Shown here piece after piece: positions 180 through 13,078 of a stretch of DNA of 15,696 nucleotides; within the stretch, counting starts at the first letter, position 1; each line of letters begins with the position of its first letter. Position numbers and translations under genes: made by a program. A model generated the notes under the pieces. That model was not told where the DNA came from. It made no database searches and saw only the letters and a list, made by a program, of their open reading frames with translations. Source of the stretch: an uncultured Chlorobiaceae bacterium (lineage in GTDB: Bacteria; Bacteroidota; Chlorobiia; Chlorobiales; Chlorobiaceae); assembly GCA_903838095.1 (NCBI GenBank), contig CAILXE010000057.1:1-15696 (forward strand). The letters run 5' to 3'.

Positions 180-214
180 AGAGGAAAAAACTTATTTTAA
201 TATTGGAGGGAATT

Positions 215-556
215 ATGAAGAAGAAATTTGTTACAGCAGTTCTTGCATTATCCTGTGTCGTTGTTTCTGTTGGTACTACGTTTGCAGCTGATCCTGTAGG
301 TTGCAATAATCTCAACATCTATGGGGTTGGTGTCAATTCACCGTTAGATGGAGATATTTTTGTAAATTTAATTCCAGATGCTGCCTGTGGTGCTTGGGGA
401 GCTGGTGTAAAAAAACAGTTTCTTTTGAGCGCTACGAACACTGATCAGACTTTGGCTGCAATATTGACAGCCTATTCAATGGGGCAAAAGCTGTGGATTA
501 AAGCTGATATTACAGCTGTTAATCCTCCGTTGGTAGCCATGTCAATGCATAAATAA
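215..556 (+). CDS. Small secreted protein of unknown function (signal peptide, two cysteines)
   Basis: A 113-residue protein. I chose the ATG at 215 because GGAGGG (205-210) sits four bases upstream; an in-frame TTG at 203 would overlap that ribosome site. Residues 1-24 are a clear Sec signal peptide: MKKK, a hydrophobic core, then TTFAA before Asp. The mature part is about 88 residues with only two cysteines (in VGCNN and AACGAW), which could form one disulfide in the periplasm. Its second half (LAAILTAYSMGQKLWIKAD) vaguely recalls small exported proteobacterial proteins with a 'CG...L..A...G' core, but I do not recognise the family and assign no function. It is AT-richer than the downstream genes and is followed directly by hairpins, so it is probably its own transcription unit and not part of the polysaccharide operon. 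It could equally be the last gene of an upstream unit. Confidence 0.8.
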   Translation: MKKKFVTAVLALSCVVVSVGTTFAADPVGCNNLNIYGVGVNSPLDGDIFVNLIPDAACGAWGAGVKKQFLLSATNTDQTLAAILTAYSMGQKLWIKADITAVNPPLVAMSMHK

Positions 557-644: not shown

Positions 645-722
645 ATCTATAGAGGACGCTTCCTGTTGTGTGATTATGTCAAAAAAACAAATCAAACCGT
701 TAGTGAAAACGGAGTGCTTCGC

Positions 723-1577
723 ATGACTTCTCTTCACCATGGGACCAACCCTCACTCCGCTCAACCCACGTCCCTCTTGGCGCTGGGCAAAAGCCTCTGG
801 CACAACCGTCAGCTCCTTATGCAAATGACCAAGCGTGAAGTGGTGGGTCGCTACAAAGGCTCGGTCATGGGATTGGCATGGTCGTTTTTTAACCCAGTGT
901 TCATGTTGGTGGTATACACCTTTGTCTTTTCCGAGATTTTTAAATCCCGCTGGGGTGGGATTGGCGGTGACGCTAGCAAAACGCAATTTGCCTTGGTTCT
1001 TTTTGTCGGTTTGATAGTTCTGAACCTGTTTAGTGAGGTACTCAACCGCGCCCCCGGATTGATTCTTTCCAACGTCAATTACGTCAAGAAAGTTGTCTTC
1101 CCAATTGAAATACTGCCAGTCGTTGCCATGGGTGCTACTTTGTTTCATAGTCTTATCAGCCTTGGGGTACTATTGGCCGCCTTTGCACTTTTTAACGGCT
1201 ATCTGCAATGGACGGCAGTTTTTGCCCCATTTGTGCTCCTGCCATTAGTCATTCTCGCCCTTGGTATTTCCTGGATGCTTGCATCATTAGGTGTATTTCT
1301 GCGCGATGTCGGGCAAACCATCAGCATCATGACTACCGTTTTGATGTTTCTTTCCCCTGTCTTTTACCCGGTGACCGCAGTTCCGGAAAGATTCCGTCCG
1401 TTTATTATGGCTAACCCGCTCACTTTCATCATCGAGCAAGCGCGAGAAGTGTTGATCTGGGGGCATTTTCCGAACTGGATCGGTTTGGGCGGTTATACCT
1501 TTGCTGCTTCCTTTATTGCCTGGGCAGGTTACGCCTGGTTCCAAAAAACTAGAAAGGGGTTTGCTGATGTCCTTTGA
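723..1577 (+). CDS. wzm: ABC-2 type polysaccharide/O-antigen export permease (Wzm)
   Basis: A 284-residue inner-membrane permease that with Wzt forms the ATP-driven channel exporting an undecaprenyl-linked glycan. I preferred ATG 723 because GGAG (711-714) lies eight bases upstream; a TTG at 666 would add 19 residues unlike the family. Family hallmarks are visible: the N-terminal amphipathic part and KREVVGRYKGSVMGLAW (about 37-53), the NVNYVKKVVFPIEILP stretch (117-132) typical of Wzm/TagG/KpsM-type permeases, and FLSPVFYPVTAVP (209-221) followed by NPLTFIIEQAR (231-241). About six hydrophobic segments are present, at roughly 52-72, 87-108, 128-156, 164-190, 198-216 and 255-273. Length is normal for the family. 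The gene overlaps the following ATPase gene by 11 bases, indicating translational coupling. Confidence 0.95.
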   Translation: MTSLHHGTNPHSAQPTSLLALGKSLWHNRQLLMQMTKREVVGRYKGSVMGLAWSFFNPVFMLVVYTFVFSEIFKSRWGGIGGDASKTQFALVLFVGLIVLNLFSEVLNRAPGLILSNVNYVKKVVFPIEILPVVAMGATLFHSLISLGVLLAAFALFNGYLQWTAVFAPFVLLPLVILALGISWMLASLGVFLRDVGQTISIMTTVLMFLSPVFYPVTAVPERFRPFIMANPLTFIIEQAREVLIWGHFPNWIGLGGYTFAASFIAWAGYAWFQKTRKGFADVL

Positions 1578-3663
1578 TGATATCGCCATCCGTGTTACAA
1601 CACTCAGTAAACGTTACGAAATCTATAATACTCCGCGTGACAGGCTTAAACAATTTGTCTTGCCGCGTCTAAGACGGATGATGGGCAAATCACCCAAACA
1701 ATATTTCTGCGAATTTTGGGCGCTCAAAGATGTTACTTTCGAGATCAAAAAAGGTGAAACCGTAGGTATTATCGGTCTCAATGGTAGCGGCAAATCTACT
1801 CTGCTCCAAATGATCTGCGGCACGCTTAATCCAACCAGCGGCAGCATTCAAACTCATGGTCGCATTGCCGCCTTGCTGGAACTCGGTTCTGGCTTCAACC
1901 CCGAATTTACCGGGCGCGAAAATGTTTATATGAACGCTGCCGTGCTCGGTTTGAGCAAGGAAGAAGTGACTGCTCGCTTTAACGACATTGCCGCCTTTGC
2001 CGATATCGGTCAGTTCATCGAGCAGTCGGTCAAGACTTATTCCAGCGGGATGGTTGTGCGGTTGGCGTTTGCGGTTGCAGTGTGTGTCGATCCAGATATC
2101 CTCATTATCGACGAGGCCTTGGCGGTGGGCGACGCTGCCTTTCAATTCAAGTGCCTGGAACGGATGCAGCGTCTTACCAAATCTGGCACCACGCTGCTTT
2201 TTGTCTCTCACGACATGAGTATGGTTAAAAGTTTCTGCCACCAAGTGATCTATCTGGAACATGGACAGGAGAAGATGCAAGGTCAACCGGACGCTGTGGC
2301 AGAACAGTATTTCCTTGATATTCGTGACGAACAACGCCGCCATGTCTCGGGTGGAATGCCGGTGTTTCATAAGAAAGCTTTGGGTGAGAGTGGTTTGCCG
2401 GCGTTCGGGACGGAACAGGGCCGGATTGTTTCCGCCTGCTTTCTGCCCGACGAAGGCATGAAGGCGGTCATTGGTGTAGGTGAAACTGTTCGTATTCGCA
2501 TCGAGACTGAGTATGATCCCGAACTTCCAGGCGCGGCCATGAGCGTGATCCTGATGGACCGGCGTATGCTCGACATCGCTGGCAAATTTTTTTTCCTGCA
2601 TGCTGATGCAGAGCGAAAAGGAAAGTTGGTCGCAACCATTAATGTGGAATTTCATGTCCGGCTCTGGCCGGGAACCTACTTTCTCACTTTGCGTCTGGAA
2701 AGTCGGGGGATGGGACGGAATTTCATGCCGGTGGACAAGCAGACGGCTGTATTGTCTTTTGAAGTAACTCCTTACGAACCTGAGTTTCTGGGTACGGTGG
2801 ATGTCGGGATGAGGCAGGTACATCCCTCAACCATGTCGCCATCGGCACTGATTGCCGGGGAAAAGCAGCGAGTCGTTGCCCTACTGGCGATACGCAATGA
2901 GGCTCTTTACCTGCCCCGTTGCCTGGAACACTTGTACCAACAAGGGGTTGAGACCTGTATTATTGACAACGACTCAACTGATGAGAGTCTGAAAATTGCC
3001 AAACAATACATGGGGAAGGGGGTCTTTCGTATCGAGAGGCAGCCCTACATGGGCTACTTTGATTTGGTTGAACAACTGCAAATGAAGGAAAAACTGGCCG
3101 AGGAGATCGAGGCAGATTGGTTCATCCATCATGATGCTGATGAAATTTTGGAGGCGCCCCAAGCCAATATGACACTCCAAGAGGCTCTTACAGATGTCGA
3201 CAGGCTTGGTTACAATGTAGTCAATTTCGAAGAGTTTGTGTTTTTACCAGCAGATGACGATTCTACCTTTGAGGGTATGGATTATGTAACAATGATGCGT
3301 CATTATTATTTTTTTGCACCTTCAGAGCAACGCCTCCAGCGAGCTTGGAAGAAACACAAACAGCGGGTGGAATTGGCGACTTTTGCCGGTCACCACGTTC
3401 ATTTTAAAAACAAAAAGATATACCTGCAAAACTTCAAACTACGCCATTACATCGTGCTTAGCCATGAGCATCTACTCCGAAAATACGGCCGAGAACGTGT
3501 ATACAGCCGGAAGGAAGTGGAAGAGCGCCAATGGCACGGTGCGCGTGCCCATTTCGACCCAACCAGGGTGAGATTGCCTCGTCGGGAGGAATTGCGGAAT
3601 CTTGATACCGACGGTTGGAACCGTTCCAATCCTTTTACCACCCATCCCTTTTTCGGGGAATGA
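1567..3663 (+). CDS. wzt: Wzt ATPase with sugar-binding domain fused to a C-terminal glycosyltransferase domain
   Basis: A 698-residue protein starting at ATG 1567, with AAAGGGG (1553-1559) at good spacing. Residues 1-250 are the ABC ATPase: Walker A GLNGSGKST (70-78), the signature region YSSGMVVRLAF (158-168), Walker B ILIIDEALAVGD (178-189) and the H-loop SHD (214-216). Residues about 280-415 look like the beta-rich Wzt C-terminal carbohydrate-binding domain that reads the finished glycan. Wzt proteins commonly end about there (roughly 400-450 residues). Here a third domain follows (about 433-698): RVVALLAIRNEALYLPRC, IIDNDSTD (465-472) and HHDADE (521-526), the pattern of a GT-A, GT2-like transferase with a DAD metal/nucleotide motif. 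There is no stop or frameshift between domains. I infer coupling of a late glycosyl transfer, perhaps a cap, to export. ATPase assignment is firm, the CBM likely, the GT activity probable. Confidence 0.92.
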   Translation: MSFDDIAIRVTTLSKRYEIYNTPRDRLKQFVLPRLRRMMGKSPKQYFCEFWALKDVTFEIKKGETVGIIGLNGSGKSTLLQMICGTLNPTSGSIQTHGRIAALLELGSGFNPEFTGRENVYMNAAVLGLSKEEVTARFNDIAAFADIGQFIEQSVKTYSSGMVVRLAFAVAVCVDPDILIIDEALAVGDAAFQFKCLERMQRLTKSGTTLLFVSHDMSMVKSFCHQVIYLEHGQEKMQGQPDAVAEQYFLDIRDEQRRHVSGGMPVFHKKALGESGLPAFGTEQGRIVSACFLPDEGMKAVIGVGETVRIRIETEYDPELPGAAMSVILMDRRMLDIAGKFFFLHADAERKGKLVATINVEFHVRLWPGTYFLTLRLESRGMGRNFMPVDKQTAVLSFEVTPYEPEFLGTVDVGMRQVHPSTMSPSALIAGEKQRVVALLAIRNEALYLPRCLEHLYQQGVETCIIDNDSTDESLKIAKQYMGKGVFRIERQPYMGYFDLVEQLQMKEKLAEEIEADWFIHHDADEILEAPQANMTLQEALTDVDRLGYNVVNFEEFVFLPADDDSTFEGMDYVTMMRHYYFFAPSEQRLQRAWKKHKQRVELATFAGHHVHFKNKKIYLQNFKLRHYIVLSHEHLLRKYGRERVYSRKEVEERQWHGARAHFDPTRVRLPRREELRNLDTDGWNRSNPFTTHPFFGE

Positions 3664-3667
3664 TAGT

Positions 3668-4447
3668 ATGGCAATAAAAGAGATTCCCATCATAGTCGGT
3701 GGTTTTTATCGTTCCGGGACATCTTTGACCCGCCGCCTACTGGACGCGCACAGCCGGATTCATTGCGGTCCTGAGGTTAAGTTCTTCAAGGATCTGCGCG
3801 GTGATTATCTGGATGACCCCCTCGGGCATGTCCGTTTCTTCTCCACTCTGCCGTCCCTGGGGTTAGAGCTGGATGAGATTCGAGACATTTTTGGTCGCGC
3901 ATTCATTGAGGCGCATGAACTTGCGACCCACAAGGCGGGCAAGGTGAGGTGGGCGGACAAAAATCCAGAAAACGTGTTGTATCTTGAACAATGGAAGCAT
4001 TTATTGCCAGGCGGGTTCGCGTTTATCCACGTGGTGCGTCATCCATTGGATGTGCTTGCCTCCCTGCTTGAGATCGGCTTTCCCAGGGCCGTGCCAGCAA
4101 CTTTCGAGGACAAGATCAAATTCCTTAAGACCTTCGTGGATGCGGGTTCGCAATATGAAACCCTGCATCCATCGATGAGCTTTCGTGTTCGTTACGAGGA
4201 ATTGGTAGCCGCCCCCACCACTACGCTGAAATCTCTATTTAATTGGCTCGGGGAGGATTTTGAACCGCAGGTATTGGATAGCTTCAGCCATGCTGAGCGA
4301 AGACGGGGAATAGAAGATCCTAAGGTTACCATGTCAAAGACTGTGCATGATCGAAGTGTCGGGCGTTGGCGGACCGACTTGACCTCGGAACAACTTGAAA
4401 TTGCCCGAGCTATTTTGGGGGCATCATTTTCGAGCTACGCAATATAA
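3668..4447 (+). CDS. PAPS-dependent sulfotransferase family protein
   Basis: A 259-residue cytoplasmic protein predicted to move sulfate from PAPS to a sugar hydroxyl. ATG 3668 is preferred over an upstream in-frame ATG at 3602 because it begins four bases after the wzt stop, GGGGA (3655-3659) lies eight bases before it, and the protein then starts at the first beta strand. Motifs: the 5'-phosphosulfate loop FYRSGTSLT (13-21), WADKNP (95-100), the 3'-phosphate site VVRHPLDVLAS (122-132) with Arg124, RYEELVAAP (175-183) and VGRWRTDLTSEQ (231-242). All are typical of bacterial Sulfotransfer_3-type enzymes, and length is in the normal range. Its position between the exporter and a second sulfotransferase-bearing gene suggests that the exported glycan, or its cap, is sulfated. 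The acceptor cannot be told from sequence. No PAPS-synthesis genes are in this window, so PAPS must come from elsewhere. Confidence 0.88.
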   Translation: MAIKEIPIIVGGFYRSGTSLTRRLLDAHSRIHCGPEVKFFKDLRGDYLDDPLGHVRFFSTLPSLGLELDEIRDIFGRAFIEAHELATHKAGKVRWADKNPENVLYLEQWKHLLPGGFAFIHVVRHPLDVLASLLEIGFPRAVPATFEDKIKFLKTFVDAGSQYETLHPSMSFRVRYEELVAAPTTTLKSLFNWLGEDFEPQVLDSFSHAERRRGIEDPKVTMSKTVHDRSVGRWRTDLTSEQLEIARAILGASFSSYAI

Positions 4448-4468: not shown

Positions 4469-7400
4469 ATGGATGACAAGAAAAAAGCTATTGTTGTTGT
4501 TTTGGGCATGCACCGCAGTGGCACGAGTGCTATTACGCGAGGCTTACAAGTAATGGGTGTGAGGCTTGGTGATAGATTAATGCCCTCCTTTGAGGGTAAT
4601 AATGCTAAAGGATTTTGGGAGGACATTGATCTTAATGCCCTGAATATTGAAATGTTGAATGCCCTTGGTAGTGATTGGCATCATTTAACACCTATTGACC
4701 CAATCGATATAGAGATTCTACGCAAGAAAGGTTACTTCCTTCGTGCCGCTGTGTTACTTCGCCAGAAAATTAGCAGTGCACCTGTTTTTGGTTTCAAAGA
4801 TCCTCGTGTAGCAAAACTATTACCATTCTGGAAAGAGGTCTTCATTCACTGTCAATTCGATGTGAGCTATGTCCTTACCGTGCGTCATCCACTCAGTGTA
4901 GTCAACTCTTTGGCTAAACGTGATAATATTGAAGCAGGGCAGAGCTATTTTCTGTGGTTGGGCTATGTTCTCACGAGTCTGACCGACAGCACTGTTGATA
5001 AGCGGGTGCTTGTTGACTATGACTGCCTGATGCAATCACCGGATCGTGAGTTGATGCGAGTTGCAAATTGCACTGGTCTGGAAATTGATCCTGCAGAGCT
5101 ACAAAGCTATAAAACCGAGTTTCTTGATCAAGGGCTGCGGCATACGGTTTACGCTTTGAATGATTTACTGCTGGATGACACTTGCCCCTTTATGGTACGT
5201 GAGGTCTACACAGCTTTACTTGATGTGGCATCCGATAAAACCAAGTTTAATGATTTAGAGTTTCAGAATAAAGTAGTGCGTTGGTCAGACGAATTTTCGC
5301 GATTTAGATCATCGTTATTGCTGATAGATAGGATTTTTGCACAAAAGGTCGTTGCTATGCAAGCCTTGGCTGAACGTGATGGGCAGATAAATCGTCTTAA
5401 TCAAGTCGTGACTGAACGTGATGGGCAGATAAATCATCTTAATCAAGTCGTGACCGAACGTGATGGGCAGATAAATCATCTTAATCAAGTCGTGACCGAA
5501 CGTGATGGGCAGATCGCTGACTTGTACACCTCAAACAGTTGGCGAATTACGCAGCCATTACGTATCGCTGTTTACCAGATGAAACGTGTCCAACGTGTTG
5601 TGGCATTGGCAATCTCTGCTATTAAACGTCGCGGCGGCTTGAGAAATACAATTAAAAAAGCAATGCAGTTATACCATTATGAGGGCTTGTCGGGCATCAG
5701 ACGTGGTTTCAGAACCATCACCACATCAGGTCAGGTTCTTCCAACGCTGGGTTCCGATAAATATGACAGAAATGACTATACTGAATGGATTCGTCGTTAT
5801 GATACGCTTACTGACGAAACACGCACCATCATGTGCGCACGCATCAATAGCTTTTCACGTAAACCGCTCATTTCAGTGGTGATGCCCACTTATAACCCCA
5901 AGCCGGAATGGTTGGTCGAAGCGATTGAATCTGTGCGCAAGCAAATTTACCCCCATTGGGAGTTGTGCATCGCCGATGATGCCTCTACCGACAATTCTAT
6001 CCGTCTCATTTTGGAACGTTACGCGAAGGAGGATTCACGCATTAAAGTGGCGTTCCGCAAGCAAAATGGTCATATCTCTGCGGCATCCAACAGCGCACTG
6101 GAGCTAGTTACTGGAGAGTGGGTTGCTTTGTTGGATCACGATGATTTATTCGCCGAACACGCATTGTTCTGGGTGGTAGATGCCATCCAGAACAATCCTG
6201 ATGTCCGCCTGATTTATTCGGACGAGGATAAGATAGATGAAGTAGGTAAAAGATTTGACCCTTACTTCAAATGCGATTGGAATGTGGACTTGTTCTATTC
6301 GCACAATCTGATCTCACATTTAGGGGTTTATCGTACAGACCTTTTGAGTAGTATTGGTGAATTTAGAGAGGGGTTGGAGGGTGCGCAGGACTACGACCTG
6401 GCCTTACGCTGCGTTGAATGTATTGAAGCCAAACAGATTCATCACATCCCCCGTGTGCTCTATCACTGGCGCATGCATGCTGAGAGCACGGCACAATCTG
6501 TGGACGCTAAACCCTATGCCATGCTGGCTGGGGAAAGGGCACTGAATGAGCACTTTCAGAGGGAAAAAATAAATGCCCAGGCCGAGTTCGTCGGTTACGG
6601 TTATAGGCTGTGCTACGCCCTGCCACTTTCCCCACCGATGGTCAGTTTGATCATACCTACCAGAAATGGGCTCCAACTGATTCGACAGTGCATTGAAAGT
6701 ATCCTTAAGAAAACCACATATCCGAATTATGAAATCCTGATAATTGATAATGGTTCGGACGATCCAGTAACACTTCAATACCTCGATAAACTGAAAGCTG
6801 AAGAGCGGGTAAGAGTAGTGCGTGATGACCGTCTCTTTAATTATTCTGCGCTGAATAATGCTGCTGTGAAATTGGCGCAGGGCGAGGTGCTGGGGTTACT
6901 TAACAACGATCTGGAAATCATCTCACCCAAGTGGTTGTCGGAGATGGTTAGTTTTGCGTTGCAGCCACGCGTAGGCGCAGTGGGCGCGCGGCTTTGGTAT
7001 TCAAATGAGAGACTTCAGCATGGTGGTATAATTTTAGGCGTAGGTGGGGTTGCGGGACATTCGCATAAACACCTACCTCGTGGCTCTTATGGTTGTTTTA
7101 ATCGCGCAAATCTGATTCAAGGTTTTTCGGCTGTAACGGGTGCTTGTCTCGTTATCCGGAAGACAATTTATGAAGAAGTCATGGGGTTGAATGAGGCTGA
7201 CCTCCAGGTCGCCTTCAACGATGTCGATTTCTGTCTCCGCGTGCGAGCAGCGGGTTATCGCAATGTCTGGACGCCCTATGCTGAATTGTATCATCACGAG
7301 TCCGCTACGCGGGGCTTTGAGGATAGCGCTGAGAAGCAGGCACGCTTTGCCAAAGAAGTGCACTACATGCAGCAAGAATGGGGTGATAGGCTATTGAATG

Positions 7401-7486
7401 ATCCTGCCTACAGCCCCAATTTGACGCTTGACCATGAAGACTTCAGTCTTGCCTGGCCGCCGAGGGTTGAACTCTTAGTGCCCTAG
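4469..7486 (+). CDS. Fusion: sulfotransferase-like domain, repeated coiled-coil linker, two GT2 glycosyltransferase domains
   Basis: A 1005-residue protein starting 21 bases after the previous stop; the ribosome site is weak. Residues 8-290: sulfotransferase-like, with VVVLGMHRSGTS (9-20), the GFWED motif (48-52), GFKDPR (108-113) and TVRHPLSVVNSL (137-148). Residues 302-350: three and a half copies of a 14-residue unit, ERDGQINxLNQVVT, then SWRITQPLR (357-365), a motif often seen at the end of coiled coils in fused bacterial glycosyltransferases. Residues 466-700: first GT2 domain with SVVMPTYNP (469-477), DDAS (503-506), LDHDD (555-559) and QDYDLALR (640-647). Residues 723-970: second GT2 domain with SLIIPTRNG (726-734), DNGSDD (760-765), LLNNDLE (810-816) and FNDVDFCLRVRAAGY (916-930). 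Both GT domains look intact, so it is probably bifunctional or polymerising. No membrane segment is evident. The N-terminal domain probably binds PAPS, but activity is inferred. Confidence 0.9.
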   Translation: MDDKKKAIVVVLGMHRSGTSAITRGLQVMGVRLGDRLMPSFEGNNAKGFWEDIDLNALNIEMLNALGSDWHHLTPIDPIDIEILRKKGYFLRAAVLLRQKISSAPVFGFKDPRVAKLLPFWKEVFIHCQFDVSYVLTVRHPLSVVNSLAKRDNIEAGQSYFLWLGYVLTSLTDSTVDKRVLVDYDCLMQSPDRELMRVANCTGLEIDPAELQSYKTEFLDQGLRHTVYALNDLLLDDTCPFMVREVYTALLDVASDKTKFNDLEFQNKVVRWSDEFSRFRSSLLLIDRIFAQKVVAMQALAERDGQINRLNQVVTERDGQINHLNQVVTERDGQINHLNQVVTERDGQIADLYTSNSWRITQPLRIAVYQMKRVQRVVALAISAIKRRGGLRNTIKKAMQLYHYEGLSGIRRGFRTITTSGQVLPTLGSDKYDRNDYTEWIRRYDTLTDETRTIMCARINSFSRKPLISVVMPTYNPKPEWLVEAIESVRKQIYPHWELCIADDASTDNSIRLILERYAKEDSRIKVAFRKQNGHISAASNSALELVTGEWVALLDHDDLFAEHALFWVVDAIQNNPDVRLIYSDEDKIDEVGKRFDPYFKCDWNVDLFYSHNLISHLGVYRTDLLSSIGEFREGLEGAQDYDLALRCVECIEAKQIHHIPRVLYHWRMHAESTAQSVDAKPYAMLAGERALNEHFQREKINAQAEFVGYGYRLCYALPLSPPMVSLIIPTRNGLQLIRQCIESILKKTTYPNYEILIIDNGSDDPVTLQYLDKLKAEERVRVVRDDRLFNYSALNNAAVKLAQGEVLGLLNNDLEIISPKWLSEMVSFALQPRVGAVGARLWYSNERLQHGGIILGVGGVAGHSHKHLPRGSYGCFNRANLIQGFSAVTGACLVIRKTIYEEVMGLNEADLQVAFNDVDFCLRVRAAGYRNVWTPYAELYHHESATRGFEDSAEKQARFAKEVHYMQQEWGDRLLNDPAYSPNLTLDHEDFSLAWPPRVELLVP
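5372..5514 (+). repeat. 42-bp in-frame tandem repeat (3.4 copies) inside the fusion gene
   Basis: Units at 5372-5413, 5414-5455 and 5456-5497, followed by 17 matching bases of a fourth (5498-5514). Units 2 and 3 are identical in DNA; unit 1 differs at two positions (CGT/CAT and a final T/C). The unit length is a multiple of 3 and equals two heptads (14 residues). Hydrophobic Ile6, Leu9 and Val13 fall at a/d/a spacing, with Arg at the fourth core position, fitting a short, rather polar coiled coil. The near-identity implies recent duplication and likely copy-number variation between strains. Confidence 0.9.
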
Positions 7487-7563: not shown

Positions 7564-9024
7564 ATGGATAATCAGGTTACAAGTGCTTCGCATAGCGGGT
7601 CGATTCATAAAACCGTTGTTGTTGACCTCGACGGCACTCTTGTCAACACTGACATGTTGGTGGAGAATTTTTTTCTTTTTCTTCGGATGCATCCTTTACG
7701 TATCCTTGAGGTGATTGCGTGGCTGTTTAAAGGTAAAGTCTATTTCAAGCGTCGTCTTGCAGATACCATTTTGTCTGAAGTTTCTTGTCTTCCCTATAAT
7801 CAGACCATTTTGAACTGGCTTGAACAGCAACGTTCTGCTGGCGCAAAACTCATTCTCGCCACAGCATCTGATCTGCGAATAGCCAACAAAGTGTCTGGGT
7901 ACTTAGGTCTTTTTGATGAAGTGATCGGCACAGAAGAAACCAATCTTTCGTCAAATAATAAACGTGACGTGCTCGTCCAACGATACGGTGAGCGAGGTTA
8001 CGAATATGTGGGCAATTCCACGGCTGATCTGGCTGTCTGGAAGACAGCTTCTGTTATACATGTCGTAAATCCCGAGCGTGGGGTGCTTGCTGCTGTTCGG
8101 AAGATTGGCAAGGTCGAGATGGTTTTCGAGAACCGGCCGCCTTATTTTCGTACTTTGGTTAAGGCAATGCGCCTCCATCAGTGGGCAAAGAACCTGCTAC
8201 TGTTTGTGCCACTGCTCGCATCCCATAGAATTATGGAAGTCCCACTTTTGTGGAACGGCCTGCTGGCCTTCATTGCTTTTGGGGCTTGTGCATCAAGCGT
8301 CTATTTGTTGAATGATTTGCTCGATCTTCCGGACGATCGAAAGCACCCAACAAAATGTAAACGACCATTGGCCGCTGGTAATCTGCCAATTTTTCATGTG
8401 CTATTTTTGATACCGGTGTTGCTTGCCGGTGCGTTTGTTGTTGCGCTGTGGTTGTTGCCTATCCAGTTTGCTGCCGTGCTTGTTGCTTATTATATCCTGA
8501 CGATTGTCTATTCGCTGTGGTTGAAGCGTGTGGTGATGCTTGATGTTGTCACTTTGGCCATGCTCTACACCATCCGTGTAGTGGCGGGGGCTGCGGTGAT
8601 GTCGCTGGTTGCAACTTCCTGGATGCTCATTTTTTGTATGTTTATTTTTTTAAGTCTGGCCTTTGTGAAACGTTATACGGAACTTCATACTGCTAGAGAA
8701 AAGGGTGTAAATGATCAGGTGGCTGGGCGGGGTTACTACCCAGAAGACTTCGAGTTGTTGGCCTCGCTTGGTGGTGCTTCGGGTTATATCTCTGTGCTGG
8801 TGCTGGCTTTTTATATCAATGAAGCAACCTCGAGTATCTTGTACCACTCCCCAAAGTGGGTGTGGGCAACTTGCCCGTTGCTTCTTTTTTGGATTAGTCG
8901 TGTATGGTTGCTAGCGCATCGTGGAGAGATGCATGAAGATCCCATCGTTTTTGCACTGCGAGACAAAGTAAGTCGCTGGGTGGGAATTTTTTTTGTAATT
9001 TTTTTTGCTTTGGGGTCTTTCTGA
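7564..9024 (+). CDS. HAD phosphatase-UbiA prenyltransferase fusion; polyprenyl-phosphate phosphoribosyltransferase (Rv3806c-like)
   Basis: A 486-residue protein. Residues 15-185 form a HAD domain: motif I VVDLDGT (19-25), LATAS (99-103), a candidate Lys133 and motif IV VGNSTAD (149-155), where the usual first acid of GDxxxD is Asn but Asp155 remains. Residues about 195-486 are a multi-pass UbiA domain: NDLLDLPDDRKHPTK (250-264) followed by KRPLAAG (266-272), and the second metal-site region YSLWLKRVVMLDV (316-328). The NDxxDxxxDxxHPTK-xRPxAAG form is that of mycobacterial decaprenyl-phosphate phosphoribosyltransferase (Rv3806c), not of ubiquinone UbiA. Prediction: PRPP plus polyprenyl phosphate gives polyprenyl-phospho-5-phosphoribose, and the HAD part may remove the 5-phosphate, a step assigned to a separate phosphatase in mycobacteria. 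An ATG at 7564, 77 bases after the previous gene, has no strong ribosome site. It is coupled to the oxidase gene by TGATG. Confidence 0.9.
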   Translation: MDNQVTSASHSGSIHKTVVVDLDGTLVNTDMLVENFFLFLRMHPLRILEVIAWLFKGKVYFKRRLADTILSEVSCLPYNQTILNWLEQQRSAGAKLILATASDLRIANKVSGYLGLFDEVIGTEETNLSSNNKRDVLVQRYGERGYEYVGNSTADLAVWKTASVIHVVNPERGVLAAVRKIGKVEMVFENRPPYFRTLVKAMRLHQWAKNLLLFVPLLASHRIMEVPLLWNGLLAFIAFGACASSVYLLNDLLDLPDDRKHPTKCKRPLAAGNLPIFHVLFLIPVLLAGAFVVALWLLPIQFAAVLVAYYILTIVYSLWLKRVVMLDVVTLAMLYTIRVVAGAAVMSLVATSWMLIFCMFIFLSLAFVKRYTELHTAREKGVNDQVAGRGYYPEDFELLASLGGASGYISVLVLAFYINEATSSILYHSPKWVWATCPLLLFWISRVWLLAHRGEMHEDPIVFALRDKVSRWVGIFFVIFFALGSF

Positions 9025-10340
9025 TGGATCAATTACTTTCCTGGGGGCGTTATCCGTATAACTTGCAAACTCCTCATTCAATATATTGGCCAGATGATGT
9101 GCCACAAGCATTAACTGATAGCGGAAGTGCTGGGCAAGATGGAATGTTGGTGTTTGGTTGTGGACGAAGCTATGGTGATTCTTGCCTGGCCGAATCGAAC
9201 CATGTGCTCGTAACGCAGAATATGGACAGGGTGCTGGCAGCGGATTGGGAAACCGGTATTATCCTTGCACAAGCCGGTTTGACTTTGGCTGACGTAATTC
9301 GTATTGCTTTGCCACGTGGTTGGTTTTTGCCGGTGACGCCGGGCACCAAGTTTGTAACTTTAGGAGGTGCGGTCGCTAACGATGTGCACGGCAAGAACCA
9401 TCATGTCATGGGAACTTTTTGTCGTCATGTGAGCCGCTTGGTGATGTATCGCAGCGACGAGGGGGTTGTTGACTGTTCTCCTGCCGAACGGGAAGAACTT
9501 TTTGCAGCCACCGTCGGTGGCCTTGGCTTAACGGGGGTGATTTTGGCTGTTGAGCTTCAGTTACGGCGCGTGGTTTCCAGCGAAATCGAACAGCGAGTCA
9601 TTCGATTTGCTGGGCTCGATGAGTTTTTTGATATCTCGCAGAAGTATGATGCTACCCATGAATGCACAGTAGCTTGGATCGATTGTCTGGCCAGTGGTAA
9701 AAAAGCTGGGCGTGGTCATTACATTGTTGGAAACCATGCACAGGAAGGTCCCTTGGAGTTAGCCCCGCCAGGTGGAGTGACTATGCCCATTGATCCCCCT
9801 TTCTCTCTGGTCAATCAGTTTAGCTTGCGAGTCTTTAACACCATATATTACAATAGTCAGCAAAAGAAGGAGGTTTTAAGTCGGGTTGGATATGATGCCT
9901 TTTTTTACCCGCTTGATCGCGTGCTGGACTGGAATCGTATGTATGGTCGAGCGGGGTTCCAACAGTATCAATGCGTCGTGCCTCAACAAGACAGTTACGA
10001 AGTTATTCGCGCTGTCATTCAACAGATATCAAAAAGCGGTACAGGTTCATTCCTGGCGGTACTCAAGCAGTGCGGAAAAAGTGTTTCACCGGGATTAATT
10101 TCGTTTCCGCTACATGGTGTCTCTCTGGCGTTAGATTTTCCTCAGCGTGATCACGTAAATAAGCGCCTGTTCAGTAAACTGGATGCATTGGTTCATGAGG
10201 CTGGTGGCAGGTTATATCCCGCCAAGGACGCGCATATGAGTGCAGCATATTTTAAACAAGCCTATCCGCAGTGGGAGAGGGTAGAAGCCTTGCGCGATCC
10301 TCGTCTCATGTCACAGTTTTGGAAGAGGGTGAGCCAATGA
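9024..10340 (+). CDS. dprE1: DprE1-like FAD-dependent polyprenylphosphoryl-ribose 2'-oxidase
   Basis: A 438-residue oxidase predicted to oxidise the 2'-OH of polyprenyl-phospho-ribose to the 2'-keto intermediate, the first half of epimerisation to arabinose. ATG 9024 overlaps the preceding stop by one base. FAD-binding (VAO/PCMH-type) motifs: SWGRYP (6-11), VFGCGRSYGDSC (43-54), TPGTKFVTLGGAVA (105-118) and NDVHGKNHH (119-127), with the conserved HGKNHH seen in mycobacterial DprE1. The substrate-site Lys in YPAKD (398-402, Lys401) matches Lys418 of M. tuberculosis DprE1 by hand alignment. At the position of Cys387, the residue trapped by benzothiazinone drugs, this protein has Ala369 (FPLHGVSLALDFP, 361-373). 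Length is close to the mycobacterial enzyme. It overlaps the reductase gene by four bases (ATGA). Family assignment is firm; the exact lipid carrier is unknown. Confidence 0.93.
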   Translation: MDQLLSWGRYPYNLQTPHSIYWPDDVPQALTDSGSAGQDGMLVFGCGRSYGDSCLAESNHVLVTQNMDRVLAADWETGIILAQAGLTLADVIRIALPRGWFLPVTPGTKFVTLGGAVANDVHGKNHHVMGTFCRHVSRLVMYRSDEGVVDCSPAEREELFAATVGGLGLTGVILAVELQLRRVVSSEIEQRVIRFAGLDEFFDISQKYDATHECTVAWIDCLASGKKAGRGHYIVGNHAQEGPLELAPPGGVTMPIDPPFSLVNQFSLRVFNTIYYNSQQKKEVLSRVGYDAFFYPLDRVLDWNRMYGRAGFQQYQCVVPQQDSYEVIRAVIQQISKSGTGSFLAVLKQCGKSVSPGLISFPLHGVSLALDFPQRDHVNKRLFSKLDALVHEAGGRLYPAKDAHMSAAYFKQAYPQWERVEALRDPRLMSQFWKRVSQ

Positions 10341-11080
10341 ATAAAACTATTTTCATTGTCGGCGCTACCTCCGGTATTGCCGAAGCGGTAGCTCGGCGTT
10401 ATGCGGAACAAGGTGCACAGTTTTTTTTGGTTGCTAGAAATAGCCACAGACTTCAGGCTATATCAGCCGATTTAGCAGCTCGCGGTGCGAAAGAGGTACA
10501 AACTTTCGTGATGGACGCTAACAATAGCGATCTCATCCCCCAGATGGTTGATGCTGCCTGGCAAGCCTTTGGTACCATTGATGTGGCTCTGATCGCTCAT
10601 GGTACTCTGCCCGATCAGCAGCGTACCGAGACTGATATTCCTTATGCTATTGCCGAATTCCGCACTAATGCCGAAAGCGTGATCGCCACTCTTGCAGGTC
10701 TCGCAGGACATTTCGAATCCCAAAGGAAAGGAGTGATAGCAGTTATTGGCTCGGTTGCTGGTGATCGCGGTAGAGCCAGCAACTATCTCTATGGAGCTGC
10801 CAAGGCTGCTATTGATACTTACGTTTCAGGTCTGCGAGTGAGGCTTTTCAAGAGTGGTGTTCATGTACTGACTATCAAGCCCGGGTTTGTGGCGACCTCG
10901 ATGACCGCCGATTTAAATTTGCCGGAGCGGTTGACCGCTACACCGGAAAGTGTGGCGCGAGACATTGACAAGGCTATCACGAAGCGGAAAGATGTTCTGT
11001 ATACACCTTGGTTCTGGATTTTTATCATGCTGATTATCCGCTGGATACCAGCGGCAATTTTTAAACGTATAAAACTATGA
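10337..11080 (+). CDS. dprE2: DprE2-like SDR, polyprenylphosphoryl-2-keto-ribose reductase
   Basis: A 247-residue classical short-chain dehydrogenase/reductase predicted to reduce the 2'-keto sugar made by the neighbouring oxidase to polyprenyl-phospho-arabinose with NAD(P)H. ATG 10337 is chosen because AAGAGGG (10323-10329) is seven bases upstream and the Rossmann strand begins at once; an upstream in-frame ATG (10271) lies inside the oxidase gene. Motifs: VGATSGIAEAVAR (8-20), AHG (88-90), catalytic Ser139 in IGSVAGDRGR and Tyr152/Lys156 in YLYGAAK, then KPGFVATSM (181-189). The C-terminal tail YTPWFWIFIMLIIRWIPAAI (222-241) is hydrophobic, as in DprE2, and probably anchors the protein near its lipid substrate. 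The ATGA overlaps at both ends (four bases with the oxidase gene, four with the next gene) imply strict co-translation. Confidence 0.92.
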   Translation: MNKTIFIVGATSGIAEAVARRYAEQGAQFFLVARNSHRLQAISADLAARGAKEVQTFVMDANNSDLIPQMVDAAWQAFGTIDVALIAHGTLPDQQRTETDIPYAIAEFRTNAESVIATLAGLAGHFESQRKGVIAVIGSVAGDRGRASNYLYGAAKAAIDTYVSGLRVRLFKSGVHVLTIKPGFVATSMTADLNLPERLTATPESVARDIDKAITKRKDVLYTPWFWIFIMLIIRWIPAAIFKRIKL

Positions 11081-12963
11081 GTGACTTTATAAAACTTAAT
11101 CAACCTCCCCAATTTTTTGCTAATAGCTATTGGGGGCCATTTGGGGTGTTTTGTGCTTTTGGAGCAGTTCTTTTTGGAATCAAATTATGGCTGATTGCTA
11201 CCTATGGTAATGCAACACCATATTGGGATCAGTGGGATGCGGAAGCCGCAAACTTATATAAACCTTTTTTTGAAGGCACGCTTGGCTGGGGTGACTTATT
11301 TGCTCCCCACAACGAGCACCGCATTTTCACAACGCGTCTACTCGCCCTCGGGCTATTGACCCTTAATGGCATCTGGAATCCCCTGCTCCAGATGGTGGTT
11401 AATGCAGCCTTGCATGTCGCTACACTTGTGTTCGGCATTGCATTGCTGACTCGCGCTATAGGGCGCAATCATTTGCCGGCCTTATTGGTTTTTTCCCTGG
11501 TTCTTTTTGGTATTCCCTATGCTTGGGAGAACACGCTGGCGGGCTTTCAGACACAATTTTATTTCGTATTGCTCTTCAGTATTGCGTGTCTGTGGCTTAC
11601 CGTAACCCAACCTCCACTTTCCGCTCGTTGGTGGGGTGGAGTGGTTTGTGCAACGTTTGCTTTCTTTTCTCTGGCGTCAGGCATTTTCGCCCTTGCCGCG
11701 GCGGCAATCATTGGTCTTGTGTTTTATACGATGCAGTTGCGTAAAACCCGTAACCAGTTATTAGCGGTTGCGATTCTTGCCGGACTGTTCATGCTTGGCG
11801 CCGCGCTGACTCCTTCCTTGGCGTATCATGCATCTTTAAAAGCTGCTTCTTTTCTGCAGTTTTTTGATGCCTTGATGTCTGTTCTTGGTTGGCCACTTTC
11901 GGCAAATTTCTTTTCAGCCCTTATCCGTAATTTTCCGGCCTTAGTTTTTGGCGGTTTCATGCTTTGGAAACGTCCCCCAGTGAATGAACGCAAGTGGTTT
12001 TTGTTGGCGCTTGTCGTATGGTCGCTTGGGCAAGCTGTGAGCATTGCCTATGGTCGGGCAGTTGGCAATCTTTCCTCGCGCTATCTAGATTTGTTTGCGA
12101 TTGGCATCCTGGTGAACTTTGCGTGTTTGATTTCTATTGCCCAAGAGCATATATGTAAGTGTCGTCGCTGGATAATCGTTGCTGTGGGTACTTGGATAAT
12201 TACGGTTTTAACGTCTTTAGTGTTGCACGTTGATACACACATTCCAACTGATCTTGCCGACAAACGTGATGCCGGAATTGCGCAGGAAATCAATATGCGA
12301 AATTATTTGACAACTGGCGATTTTAATCATCTAAAAGACAAACCATTTCTTCATGTGCCCTATCCCAATTCTGTACGTTTGGCTTCGATACTCACGTCAC
12401 CTGAAATCCGGGCAATTTTGCCAACCAACATCAGGGTCCCTTTGATGGCCACATCGATTGAGAGTGAACCTGTCGGTGCATTTGTGACTGATGGATATTA
12501 CCCCACCACCCCCAAGCGTACGGGTATGGCATTGGGCAGTTACGGCACTCAAGGTGATGCGGCAACAGGGCAAGCGATAATACGATTCGACGCCAACAAG
12601 AAGAGTGCCCTGTTGGCGATTCCAGTGGCCGGATATCCCCTAAACAATGGCATCAAGCTTGAAATTGAGCAAAACGCCCAAAGGAAAACTGTAGCTATAA
12701 AAAGTAATCCAAAAGAATCTTGGGGAATGGTTTACATCAAGGTTGATAAAGGACCTTTTTCCATCATACTTACCGATTTAAGTAAAGAGAATACTGGTTG
12801 GGTGGCGGTTGGCGCTCCTGTTGTGACGGGTAGGCTGGATGTGTTCGCCAATCGCCTGCTTGCAAACTCGTTTGTGTTTATTATGCTGGGTCTTATGGTT
12901 GTGGTGTTGTTGCTAACGCAATGCGACTTGACAAGCCGTTTAACAAAGTGCGAGGGGGACTGA
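11077..12963 (+). CDS. Multi-pass membrane protein, putative GT-C glycosyltransferase (candidate arabinosyltransferase)
   Basis: A 628-residue protein, start overlapping the reductase stop by ATGA. An N-terminal hydrophobic helix (about 22-42) is followed by a loop rich in conserved-looking polar residues, PYWDQWDAE (48-56) and FAPHNEHRI (75-83), the place where GT-C enzymes carry their catalytic Asp/Glu. Further signatures are WENTLAGFQTQFYF (150-163) and NLSSRYLDL in the middle third. I count roughly ten hydrophobic segments up to about residue 390, then a soluble, probably periplasmic, region (about 390-600) and a final helix (VFIMLGLMVVVLLL). The layout resembles GT-C glycosyltransferases that use polyprenyl-phosphate sugars, but I cannot name a CAZy family from memory. 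Its tight coupling to the arabinose-lipid genes makes polyprenyl-phospho-Araf the most likely donor. Glycosyltransferase role is inference; membrane topology is visible. Confidence 0.78.
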   Translation: MSDFIKLNQPPQFFANSYWGPFGVFCAFGAVLFGIKLWLIATYGNATPYWDQWDAEAANLYKPFFEGTLGWGDLFAPHNEHRIFTTRLLALGLLTLNGIWNPLLQMVVNAALHVATLVFGIALLTRAIGRNHLPALLVFSLVLFGIPYAWENTLAGFQTQFYFVLLFSIACLWLTVTQPPLSARWWGGVVCATFAFFSLASGIFALAAAAIIGLVFYTMQLRKTRNQLLAVAILAGLFMLGAALTPSLAYHASLKAASFLQFFDALMSVLGWPLSANFFSALIRNFPALVFGGFMLWKRPPVNERKWFLLALVVWSLGQAVSIAYGRAVGNLSSRYLDLFAIGILVNFACLISIAQEHICKCRRWIIVAVGTWIITVLTSLVLHVDTHIPTDLADKRDAGIAQEINMRNYLTTGDFNHLKDKPFLHVPYPNSVRLASILTSPEIRAILPTNIRVPLMATSIESEPVGAFVTDGYYPTTPKRTGMALGSYGTQGDAATGQAIIRFDANKKSALLAIPVAGYPLNNGIKLEIEQNAQRKTVAIKSNPKESWGMVYIKVDKGPFSIILTDLSKENTGWVAVGAPVVTGRLDVFANRLLANSFVFIMLGLMVVVLLLTQCDLTSRLTKCEGD

Positions 12964-13078
12964 TAGCATGAAATTGTTTACAGACTTCCCCTGAAAATCG
13001 ATCTTATATCTGGCTGCTTCTTACGATTTTTTCTGCTTCTGATGGCTTCCAGGCACTAGCAGCAACTCATGTCGTTTT
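12964..13078. other. 115-base spacer, possibly with decayed coding sequence
   Basis: This is the longest gap inside the cluster. ATGAAATTG at 12968 opens only an eight-codon frame ending in TGA. In the +1 frame from there, an uninterrupted reading continues with a hydrophobic stretch (SYIWLLLTIFSASDGFQALAA) across the gap and into the next gene. It could be a frameshifted remnant of a membrane-protein start, or chance. No clear terminator or promoter is visible. Confidence 0.3.

What the first reader, a model, noticed from the sequence alone, without database searches (positions are those of the whole stretch)
4469..7486. Single-polypeptide sulfotransferase, coiled-coil and dual glycosyltransferase: possible built-in terminator, ruler and polymerase
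The sequence directly shows a PAPS-type sulfotransferase domain, a repeated heptad-compatible linker and two complete GT2 domains in one frame. In the well-studied ABC-exported O9a system of E. coli, a separate capping enzyme (WbdD, kinase/methyltransferase) uses a coiled coil as a molecular ruler to set the chain length made by a polymerase (WbdA), and Wzt recognises the cap. Here the analogous parts would be fused: sulfate as the cap, the repeated linker as the ruler and the GT2 pair as the polymerase. The linker is much shorter than that of WbdD, and the sulfotransferase could instead decorate internal residues or be only structural.
Basis: partly seen in the sequence, partly recalled or inferred. 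Interest (0 to 1): 0.75.

Follow-up and report, generated by a model that had tools for sequence, protein, structure and literature searches.

The report
Sulfate-capping polymerase with built-in ruler
One bacterial protein joins a sulfate-adding enzyme, a helical spacer whose length mostly varies in steps of seven residues, and two sugar-adding enzymes; comparisons suggest it caps exported surface sugar chains with sulfate, a cap chemistry not found in the papers searched.

Summary
ORF 4469-7486 encodes a PAPS-sulfotransferase fold (residues 1-256), a long helix with 14-residue repeats and two complete GT2 domains. The fused terminator-ruler-polymerase layout is not new (Klebsiella O12 WbbB, O7 ORF6). 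What appears new is the terminator: a sulfotransferase (ST). Comparative evidence supports capping. In 24 of 74 usable related loci the ST gene directly follows a wzt with a carbohydrate-binding module (CBM); other sulfotransferases in some of those genomes do so in 0 of 20. The CBM type found beside these STs also occurs in four census loci without this ST family, and those carry other sulfotransferases (three backed by profiles or named relatives, one by motif only). Spacer length varies from 44 to 361 residues, yet 27 of 33 are 2 mod 7. Against: the window's repeats do not score as coiled coil by COILS; its own CBM is not the main ST-linked type (relatives of its type lie near ST-coil genes in 2 of 3 loci); 28 of 74 ST loci show no Wzt, and half of a wider ST sample lacks a coil; no glycan is known. 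A sulfate cap is likely, not shown.

The parts
666..1577 (+). wzm, ABC-2 permease of the glycan exporter
   Evidence: PF01061 E 2.3e-23
1567..3663 (+). wzt: nucleotide-binding domain, Wzt_C carbohydrate-binding module (residues 280-412), then a fused GT2_4-like domain (443-540); start ATG 1567 inferred
   Evidence: PF00005, PF14524 E 5.9e-12, PF13704 E 2e-12
3668..4447 (+). stand-alone sulfotransferase ST2 (first ATG, four bases after the wzt stop; start inferred); candidate second sulfating enzyme
   Evidence: PF13469 E 4e-24 on the longer frame 3602-4447
4469..7486 (+). the fusion: sulfotransferase - helical spacer - SWR motif - GT2 - GT2, 1005 aa
4469..5236 (+). PAPS sulfotransferase domain, residues 1-256 (GMHRSGTS loop 13-20, E51, KDPR 110-113, R139-x7-S147)
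5306..5527 (+). predicted continuous helix, residues 280-353 (about 110 A at 1.5 A per residue): spacer/ruler
   Evidence: pLDDT 90-95 to about residue 340; pLDDT 45-61 over residues 311-360
5372..5514 (+). 42-bp tandem repeat, 3.4 copies, 98% identical: 14 aa = two heptads per unit
5531..5545 (+). conserved S-x-S-W-R motif (W358) between spacer and GT modules
5873..6349 (+). GT2 domain 1 (residues 469-627)
   Evidence: PF00535 E 8.2e-53 for the protein; nearest solved sequence chondroitin synthase
6632..7309 (+). GT2 domain 2 (residues 722-947)
   Evidence: PF13641 E 8.7e-25
7564..9024 (+). HAD phosphatase + UbiA polyprenyl-phosphate phosphoribosyltransferase (pentofuranose donor)
   Evidence: NF006088 630.7 bits over cut-off 351
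9024..10340 (+). DprE1-like oxidase (ribose to arabinose epimerisation)
   Evidence: NF053785 346 bits, under its cut-off 500
10337..11080 (+). DprE2-like reductase (listed frame 10271-11080, start inferred)
   Evidence: NF053786 184 bits, under its cut-off 250
11077..12963 (+). membrane protein, GT-C-like (by size and place); relative at the same place in L018
   Evidence: no Pfam hit; 271 bits to L018
13079..14929 (+). membrane GT-C-like (PMT family) protein
   Evidence: PF13231/PF02366

Best explanation
The protein is a one-piece assembly enzyme for an ABC-exported surface glycan. The two C-terminal GT2 domains extend the lipid-linked chain in the cytoplasm. [quoted passage not shown] The helical spacer, which lengthens and shortens mostly in heptad steps, holds the two sites apart so that only chains long enough to reach the sulfotransferase are capped. 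Wzm/Wzt then exports the chain, its CBM reading the capped end. The downstream PPPRS/DprE1/DprE2/GT-C genes would add D-arabinofuranose side chains in the periplasm. Shown by computation: domains, fold, motif conservation, heptad phasing, linkage of part of the ST family to CBM-bearing Wzt, swapping of the end module on one GT2-GT2 core. Inferred: enzyme activity, terminal site of sulfate, ruler function, cap recognition by this Wzt, the arabinose.
For: Fold and intact PAPS motifs. Spacer W272-W358: 27 of 33 proteins 2 mod 7, 18 of 24 distinct lengths, P 2e-10; no phasing on the other side of W358. Near-identical proteins with spacer lengths 184/212/240. ST gene adjacent to CBM-bearing Wzt in 24 of 74 loci, to shorter Wzt in 11 more, against 0 of 20 other STs. 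A CBM profile built from 25 ST-linked Wzts scores >=100 bits in 7 of 60 census loci, each with an ST or ST-like gene among the first two genes after wzt; four of the seven are not of this ST family and were not in the profile. End modules interchange on the same core. Window-type CBM in the same locus as ST-coil genes in L352 and L353. Three of the five STs nearest the window's on the ST tree are Wzt-adjacent.
Against: COILS does not call the window's linker a coil. The window's CBM scores 4.9 bits to the main ST-linked CBM profile and is at most 20% identical to the 84 others; L057 and L077, ST-adjacent, also lack that type. 28 of 74 ST loci have no Wzt in the flanks held; in a less selected sample Wzt is seen upstream in 5 of 30 and no coil in 16 of 30. 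L018, with the window's gene order, shows no exporter upstream. Among the 80 loci none with this same GT2-GT2 core directly follows a CBM-bearing Wzt. A second sulfotransferase lies between wzt and the fusion. L195 (Bacteroidota) has the ST family after a wzt without the ST-type CBM. At least 3 of 53 other census loci have a sulfotransferase without that CBM type. No glycan structure.
Confidence: 0.6

Rival explanations
1. The sulfotransferase decorates internal residues (each repeat or some), and the helix is only a tether that keeps it near the polymerase.
For: ST domains of this family also occur with no Wzt nearby (28 of 74 loci), many without a coil in a wider sample (16 of 30), and L018 has no exporter upstream; bacterial capsules can be sulfated internally (recalled).
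Against: A tether needs no heptad phase, yet spacer length keeps it. Same position and order as known terminators, and CBM type goes with sulfotransferase presence.
Confidence: 0.2
2. The separate ST2 (3668-4447), next to wzt, makes the cap that this Wzt reads; the fused domain sulfates something else.
For: ST2 is the gene directly after wzt and a Pfam-grade Sulfotransfer_3; the window's CBM is not the usual partner type of the fused ST family. In L240, with an ST-type CBM, the sulfotransferase is also stand-alone, second gene after wzt.
Against: Two of three relatives of the window's CBM type lie in a locus with ST-family coil proteins; no ST2 relative above 45 bits was seen in the 80 ST loci.
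Confidence: 0.12
3. The N-terminal domain has lost catalysis and only scaffolds the complex.
For: Below Pfam's reporting level in this protein.
Against: PAPS-site residues kept: R16 67 of 67, T19 67 of 67, E51 68 of 68, R139, S147 and R151 69 of 69 homologues that have the column.
Confidence: 0.04

Closest known systems
Klebsiella pneumoniae O7 ORF6 (methyltransferase-kinase / coiled coil / GT2 / GT2)
   Same: Same order of parts in one polypeptide; ABC export; terminator at the far end of the coil (PMC11231755: outline and passages; first part of the Discussion).
   Different: Terminator there is a methyltransferase-kinase, with an extra CBM-like domain in the protein; here a sulfotransferase. 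The sequence of ORF6 was not compared here.
Klebsiella pneumoniae O12 WbbB (Kdo transferase / coiled coil / two GT modules)
   Same: Single polypeptide with termination, chain-length control and polymerisation (PMC11231755).
   Different: Cap is a Kdo sugar; its GT modules are GT99/GT102/GT103.
E. coli O9a WbdD + WbdA
   Same: Terminator with coil as ruler; Wzt CBM reading a cap (general account).
   Different: Two proteins; cap is methylphosphate. ST-coil proteins without a GT domain directly after wzt (L010, L019, L087) match this format.
Aeromonas salmonicida wbsalmo: wzt - ORF19 (216 aa, sulfotransferase domain) - WbbB
   Same: A sulfotransferase gene between wzt and a large polymerase, as with ST2 here (PMC4483657, passages).
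   Different: Sulfotransferase not fused; ORF19 is not among the mutants listed; the polymerase there is a WbbB homologue (63% identity to the Klebsiella one).
Geobacillus S-layer glycan WsaE
   Same: Fused methyltransferase and rhamnosyltransferases with an ABC exporter (recalled; PMC2943079 seen only in the listing).
   Different: Methyl cap (recalled).
Three-component pentofuranose side-chain systems (Citrobacter O1/O2)
   Same: HAD+UbiA donor synthase, DprE1/E2 homologues for Araf, GT-C transferase (PMC11127046, passages).
   Different: No MATE flippase gene seen in the window; contig ends.

Membership tests
PAPS-dependent sulfotransferase superfamily | sulfotransferase fold | tested here: met
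PAPS-dependent sulfotransferase superfamily | 5'-phosphosulfate loop and 3'-phosphate site (Arg-x7-Ser; motif names recalled) | tested here: met
   GMHRSGTS 13-20; R139 and S147 in 69 of 69
PAPS-dependent sulfotransferase superfamily | sulfate transfer from PAPS | not testable with these tools
   APS kinase present in the assembly; ATP-sulfurylase PF01747 only below cut-off, with a stop; CysDN not searched
Pfam PF13469 Sulfotransfer_3 | score over the curated cut-off (27 bits) | tested here: not met
   No hit at E<=0.01, so not filed as a PF13469 member; some relatives pass (L008 36.3, L010 27.6, L034 35.8, L039 35.8), others do not (L013 20.5, L019 22.2)
Coiled-coil chain terminators of ABC-exported glycans (WbdD / WbbB / O7 ORF6 kind) | modifying enzyme at the end of the coil away from the polymerase | tested here: met
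   Order ST - helix - GT2 - GT2
Coiled-coil chain terminators of ABC-exported glycans (WbdD / WbbB / O7 ORF6 kind) | extended coiled coil | tested here: inconclusive
   Helix 280-353 and heptad phasing in relatives; COILS negative on the window, positive after the ST in 62 of 80 loci but in only 14 of 30 of a wider sample; oligomer not modelled
Coiled-coil chain terminators of ABC-exported glycans (WbdD / WbbB / O7 ORF6 kind) | Wzt with a C-terminal CBM in the locus | tested here: met
   PF14524 in window wzt
Coiled-coil chain terminators of ABC-exported glycans (WbdD / WbbB / O7 ORF6 kind) | CBM specific for the cap made | tested here: inconclusive
   Family level: CBM type goes with ST presence. 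Window CBM is another type, found with ST-coil genes in 2 of 3 loci
[quoted passage not shown]
   needs glycan analysis
Three-component pentofuranose system | polyprenyl-phosphate phosphoribosyltransferase with HAD phosphatase | tested here: met
   NF006088 over cut-off; PF00702 and PF01040
Three-component pentofuranose system | DprE1/DprE2 pair | tested here: inconclusive
   DprE1 model is the best NCBIfam match of its protein, DprE2 model the second of its protein; both under their cut-offs
Three-component pentofuranose system | MATE flippase | tested here: inconclusive
   none among 10 window proteins scanned; contig cut at 15696

The most novel reading that the evidence does not exclude
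Sulfate is a third general cap chemistry for ABC-exported glycans, beside methyl/methylphosphate and Kdo: more than one sulfotransferase family has been joined to coiled-coil rulers, in several phyla, and Wzt carries a recognisable CBM type for sulfated ends. The ruler evolves in heptad steps that keep the angular register between capping and polymerising sites.
Probability: 0.5. Interest if true: 0.82.

Novelty: new variant of a known kind. Interest (0 to 1): 0.68.

Why it matters
Known caps are given as methylation, (methyl)phosphorylation and special sugars such as Kdo (PMC9445017, passages). A sulfate cap would make a sulfated end the mark that licenses export, explain sulfotransferases beside wzt, and offer natural ruler-length variants (spacers 184/212/240 in otherwise near-identical proteins) to test how a ruler sets polymer length. 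Heptad-locked spacer length adds a testable claim: rotation, not only distance, may matter.

Tried and rejected
A first census script missed genes whose frame opens inside wzt; corrected, where one more ST locus (L236) appeared and the Bacteroidota result stayed the same. Three Wzts first counted as CBM-bearing (L025, L032, L085) have too little after the nucleotide-binding domain; the count was lowered from 27 to 24. An earlier count said the wzt link holds 'in a majority' of loci; the count is 24 of 74. The Bacteroidota census (80 loci) was drawn because the tool groups the window's assembly with that sample; it gave one strong ST right after wzt (L195) and two weak hits (L163 first gene, L191 third gene), and no ST-type CBM. 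PDB profile search of the L271 family found no sulfotransferase, mostly coiled coils at E 0.16 or worse, and Pfam gave nothing, so L271 rests on motifs. L240's protein has no Pfam hit either; relatives are named 'sulfotransferase family 2', one with PF03567, and its best solved-structure hit, heparan sulfate 2-O-sulfotransferase, is not significant (E 0.079). Tetranucleotide comparison of the window with its assembly was indecisive. On the ST tree, adjacency to CBM-Wzt is scattered: 16 changes for 25 rows, shuffled mean 21.5. Six paper searches for a sulfotransferase terminator (a held open-licence library only) listed none.

Rows dropped: phasing used 69 ST proteins, of which 56 have the SWR motif and 33 also the W272-type anchor. 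Core-family figures rest on the best 120 of 2769 hits. Locus figures rest on the best 80 of 582 confirmed, itself a capped list; 6 of the 80 have under 1.6 kb upstream. 'CBM' there means at least 100 residues after the nucleotide-binding domain, not a Pfam match. Of 20 control STs three lie on loci cut to 2.2-2.5 kb. Of 73 Wzt hits, 60 were fetched: three with short frames, one without downstream sequence and the nine lowest were left out. For Bacteroidota 80 of the hits listed were fetched. The CBM profile was built from 25 of 28 ST-linked Wzts, leaving out the window, L057 and L077, which then did not match it; three of the 25 are census loci and L236 is the genome of L008. 111 genes went into (first two per locus, under 120 aa left out, cut at 480 aa). 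PF13469 matched 7 members there; which ones is not listed, and the three ST loci without ST-type CBM (L277, L279, L287) come from phmmer, one weak (12.9 bits). Further PF03567 members would not have shown, so 3 of 53 is a lower bound. One search tried six anchor columns, all with P about 0.007.
Full report

The spacer. Residues 280-353 are predicted as one helix in both models, well scored in the shorter one (pLDDT 90-95 to about residue 340) and poorly in the full one (45-61 over residues 311-360). The DNA there is a 42-bp tandem repeat, 98% identical, the only one TRF reports in the window, so the gene has probably gained or lost units of 14 residues, two heptads, recently.

Heptad phasing. 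In homologues the distance from the tryptophan after the sulfotransferase (W272) to the tryptophan of the SWR motif (W358) runs from 44 to 361 residues, and 27 of 33 distances leave remainder 2 on division by 7 (18 of 24 distinct lengths, P 2e-10). From Y247 the figure is 37 of 56 with one remainder (21 of 39 distinct, P 6e-8). The stretch after W358 shows no such preference (44 proteins, 13 distinct lengths). Among 28 close pairs, 24 differ in spacer length and 18 of these differences are multiples of 7. Five proteins with ST 88-100% and core 95-100% identical have spacers of 184, 184, 212, 240 and 240 residues. Some repeat numbers may be assembly errors, and pairs are not independent. Proteins with a Methyltransf_24 domain in place of the sulfotransferase show weaker phasing (9 of 17; 7 of 13 distinct, P 0.007). 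Tandem duplication in units of 7 or 14 would by itself keep phase, so this shows a heptad-built helix rather than proving selection on angle.

Modularity. All of the 120 best homologues have the core region and 69 carry this sulfotransferase. By my reading of the Pfam column the others have methyltransferase (27), LmbE-type (7), GT4-type (4) or no named extra domain (13); for some the extra domain may lie at the C terminus. On a FastTree tree of the core the sulfotransferase label needs 10 changes, at least 8 forced by supported branches: the end module has been swapped repeatedly on one core. Conversely, in loci with CBM-Wzt next door, the ST module sits in front of other partners: no GT domain (L008, L010, L019, L087, and L011 with a long coil), GT2 (L013), RgpF/WbsX/GT2 (L027), RgpF with WsaF (L034), WsaF (L073), GT4 (L082), GT4/GT2/methyltransferase (L054).

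Neighbourhood. Of 80 loci found with the sulfotransferase alone, 74 have at least 1.6 kb upstream. In 24 the gene directly before it is a wzt with a CBM (at least 100 residues after the nucleotide-binding domain), in 11 a shorter wzt, in 11 wzt lies elsewhere in the flanks, in 28 none was seen. For other Sulfotransfer_3 genes in 21 genomes chosen for having the linked pair, 0 of 20 follow a wzt; 10 of 10 of the family's own members in that set do, by the choice of genomes. Fisher P is 4e-5 for 35 of 74 against 0 of 20, and 0.001 for 24 of 74. A less selected sample weakens the link: in 36 of 399 genomes of the order of G394 with the ST, 30 loci with about 1.5 kb flanks show wzt upstream in 5, four of them genomes already in the first set, and no predicted coil in 16. 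The ST domain thus has other uses too. On the ST tree the window's five nearest neighbours are L009, L008, L011, L010 and L012, of which L008, L010 and L011 are CBM-Wzt-adjacent. The 80 loci span Pseudomonadota, Thermodesulfobacteriota, Chloroflexota, Bacteroidota and others; the CBM-adjacent ones are Pseudomonadota, two Thermodesulfobacteriota and one assembly titled Bacillota.

The CBM test. Of 28 ST-linked Wzts, 25 share one CBM type (mean identity 47%, minimum 35%); the window, L057 and L077 do not and were left out of the profile. On the CBM tree of 85 Wzts the ST label needs 4 changes against 24 for shuffles, on the nucleotide-binding-domain tree 6. Scored against the census of CBM-bearing Wzts in the class of G394 (369 genomes, 60 of 73 hits fetched), the profile gives at least 100 bits in seven loci and at most 38 in the rest. 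Three of the seven are family members used in the profile (L236, L237, L247). The other four lack this ST family, apart from a 16-bit match in L294; among their first two genes after wzt are a PF03567 sulfotransferase with coil and GT4 (L241), a PF13469 sulfotransferase with coil (L294), a stand-alone relative of sulfotransferase family 2 (L240), and a protein with FRAGST and R-x7-S motifs, coil and SWR motif (L271; fold unconfirmed). In the other 53 loci at least three have a sulfotransferase in those positions. Fisher P 3e-7 for 7 of 7 against 3 of 53; 9e-5 without the three profile loci; 0.003 if L271 is then counted as a failure. So the CBM type goes with sulfotransferase genes of different families. 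This is the best evidence that the CBM reads a sulfated end.

The window itself. Its wzt CBM is not of that type (4.9 bits; at most 20% identity to the others), and its wzt carries an extra GT2-like domain; its Wzm and nucleotide-binding domain do match those of ST-linked loci well. Searching 300 genomes with the window's CBM region and extra domain found three CBM relatives at 37-38% identity. Two of them (L352, L353) lie with ST-family coil proteins in the same locus, a few kb away and in L352 on the other strand; the third contig is 9.8 kb and cut. The window therefore fits a second, smaller ST-linked CBM type, on three cases. The stand-alone ST2 next to wzt is an alternative source of the cap. 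Among the 80 loci none with this same GT2-GT2 core directly follows a CBM-bearing wzt. The nearest gene order, L018, keeps ST-GT2-GT2, PPPRS, DprE1, DprE2 and both GT-C-like genes but has unrelated genes (ftsH, gcpE and others) upstream.

Downstream genes. PPPRS, DprE1- and DprE2-like genes and GT-C-like proteins match the published route to periplasmic pentofuranose side chains, DprE1/E2 homologues going with arabinofuranose (PMC11127046, passages); no flippase is seen before the contig ends.

Comparison with what is known. Terminator, coil and polymerase in one protein is established for K. pneumoniae O12 WbbB and O7 ORF6, and the coil is described there as a characteristic marker of the strategy (PMC11231755, passages, first part of the Discussion). 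Caps named in print include methyl, (methyl)phosphate and special sugars such as Kdo (PMC9445017, passages). The held text of the first has no word beginning 'sulf', that of the second none beginning 'sulfat', 'sulfo' or 'sulph', and six searches of the held library listed no sulfotransferase terminator. The nearest hint is A. salmonicida, where a sulfotransferase gene lies between wzt and wbbB. The layout is a known kind; the sulfotransferase terminator is a new variant.

Limits. No activity, glycan or chain-length data; no oligomer model; loci and proteins are samples ranked by similarity; related sequences are not independent, and P values on lengths treat distinct lengths as independent.

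Noticed in passing
window 1567-3663: Wzt is fused at its C terminus, after the CBM, to a GT2_4-like domain; L353's Wzt instead ends in a weak sulfatase-like match (E 0.0015, under cut-off); L355 and L356 hold relatives of the GT part in frames without the Wzt part.
   Followed up: partly
window 3668-4447: Second, stand-alone sulfotransferase directly after wzt; no relative of it above 45 bits in the 80 ST loci.
   Followed up: partly
L271:1548-2795 and proteins P0121-P0240: Family of at least 438 proteins (120 listed), nearly all listed ones without Pfam domains, with sulfotransferase-like motifs, a coil and the same SWR motif in the 26 aligned: candidate unrecognised sulfotransferase-ruler family.
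   Followed up: partly
window, whole contig (G000:C57): The assembly seems grouped with green sulfur bacteria (inferred only from the size of G086:C1, recalled), yet the nearest ST and Wzt relatives are mostly Betaproteobacteria by title; the contig may be acquired or mis-binned. Composition test indecisive.
   Followed up: partly
window 7564-14929: D-arabinofuranose-type donor and transferase genes beside a sulfotransferase polymerase, conserved in L018; PPPRS and DprE1 also lie about 4 kb after an ST protein in L064.
   Followed up: partly
P0002 and P0008: Close relatives with the sulfotransferase at the N terminus and, by length and Pfam column, a methyltransferase added at the C terminus: two possible modifying enzymes on one polymerase.
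   Followed up: no
P0021, P0023, P0024, P0027, P0028: Near-identical proteins that differ mainly in spacer length by 28 or 56 residues: natural ruler variants, or assembly differences.
   Followed up: partly
window 203-556: Small ORF before wzm with a signal-peptide-like start, no function assigned.
   Followed up: no
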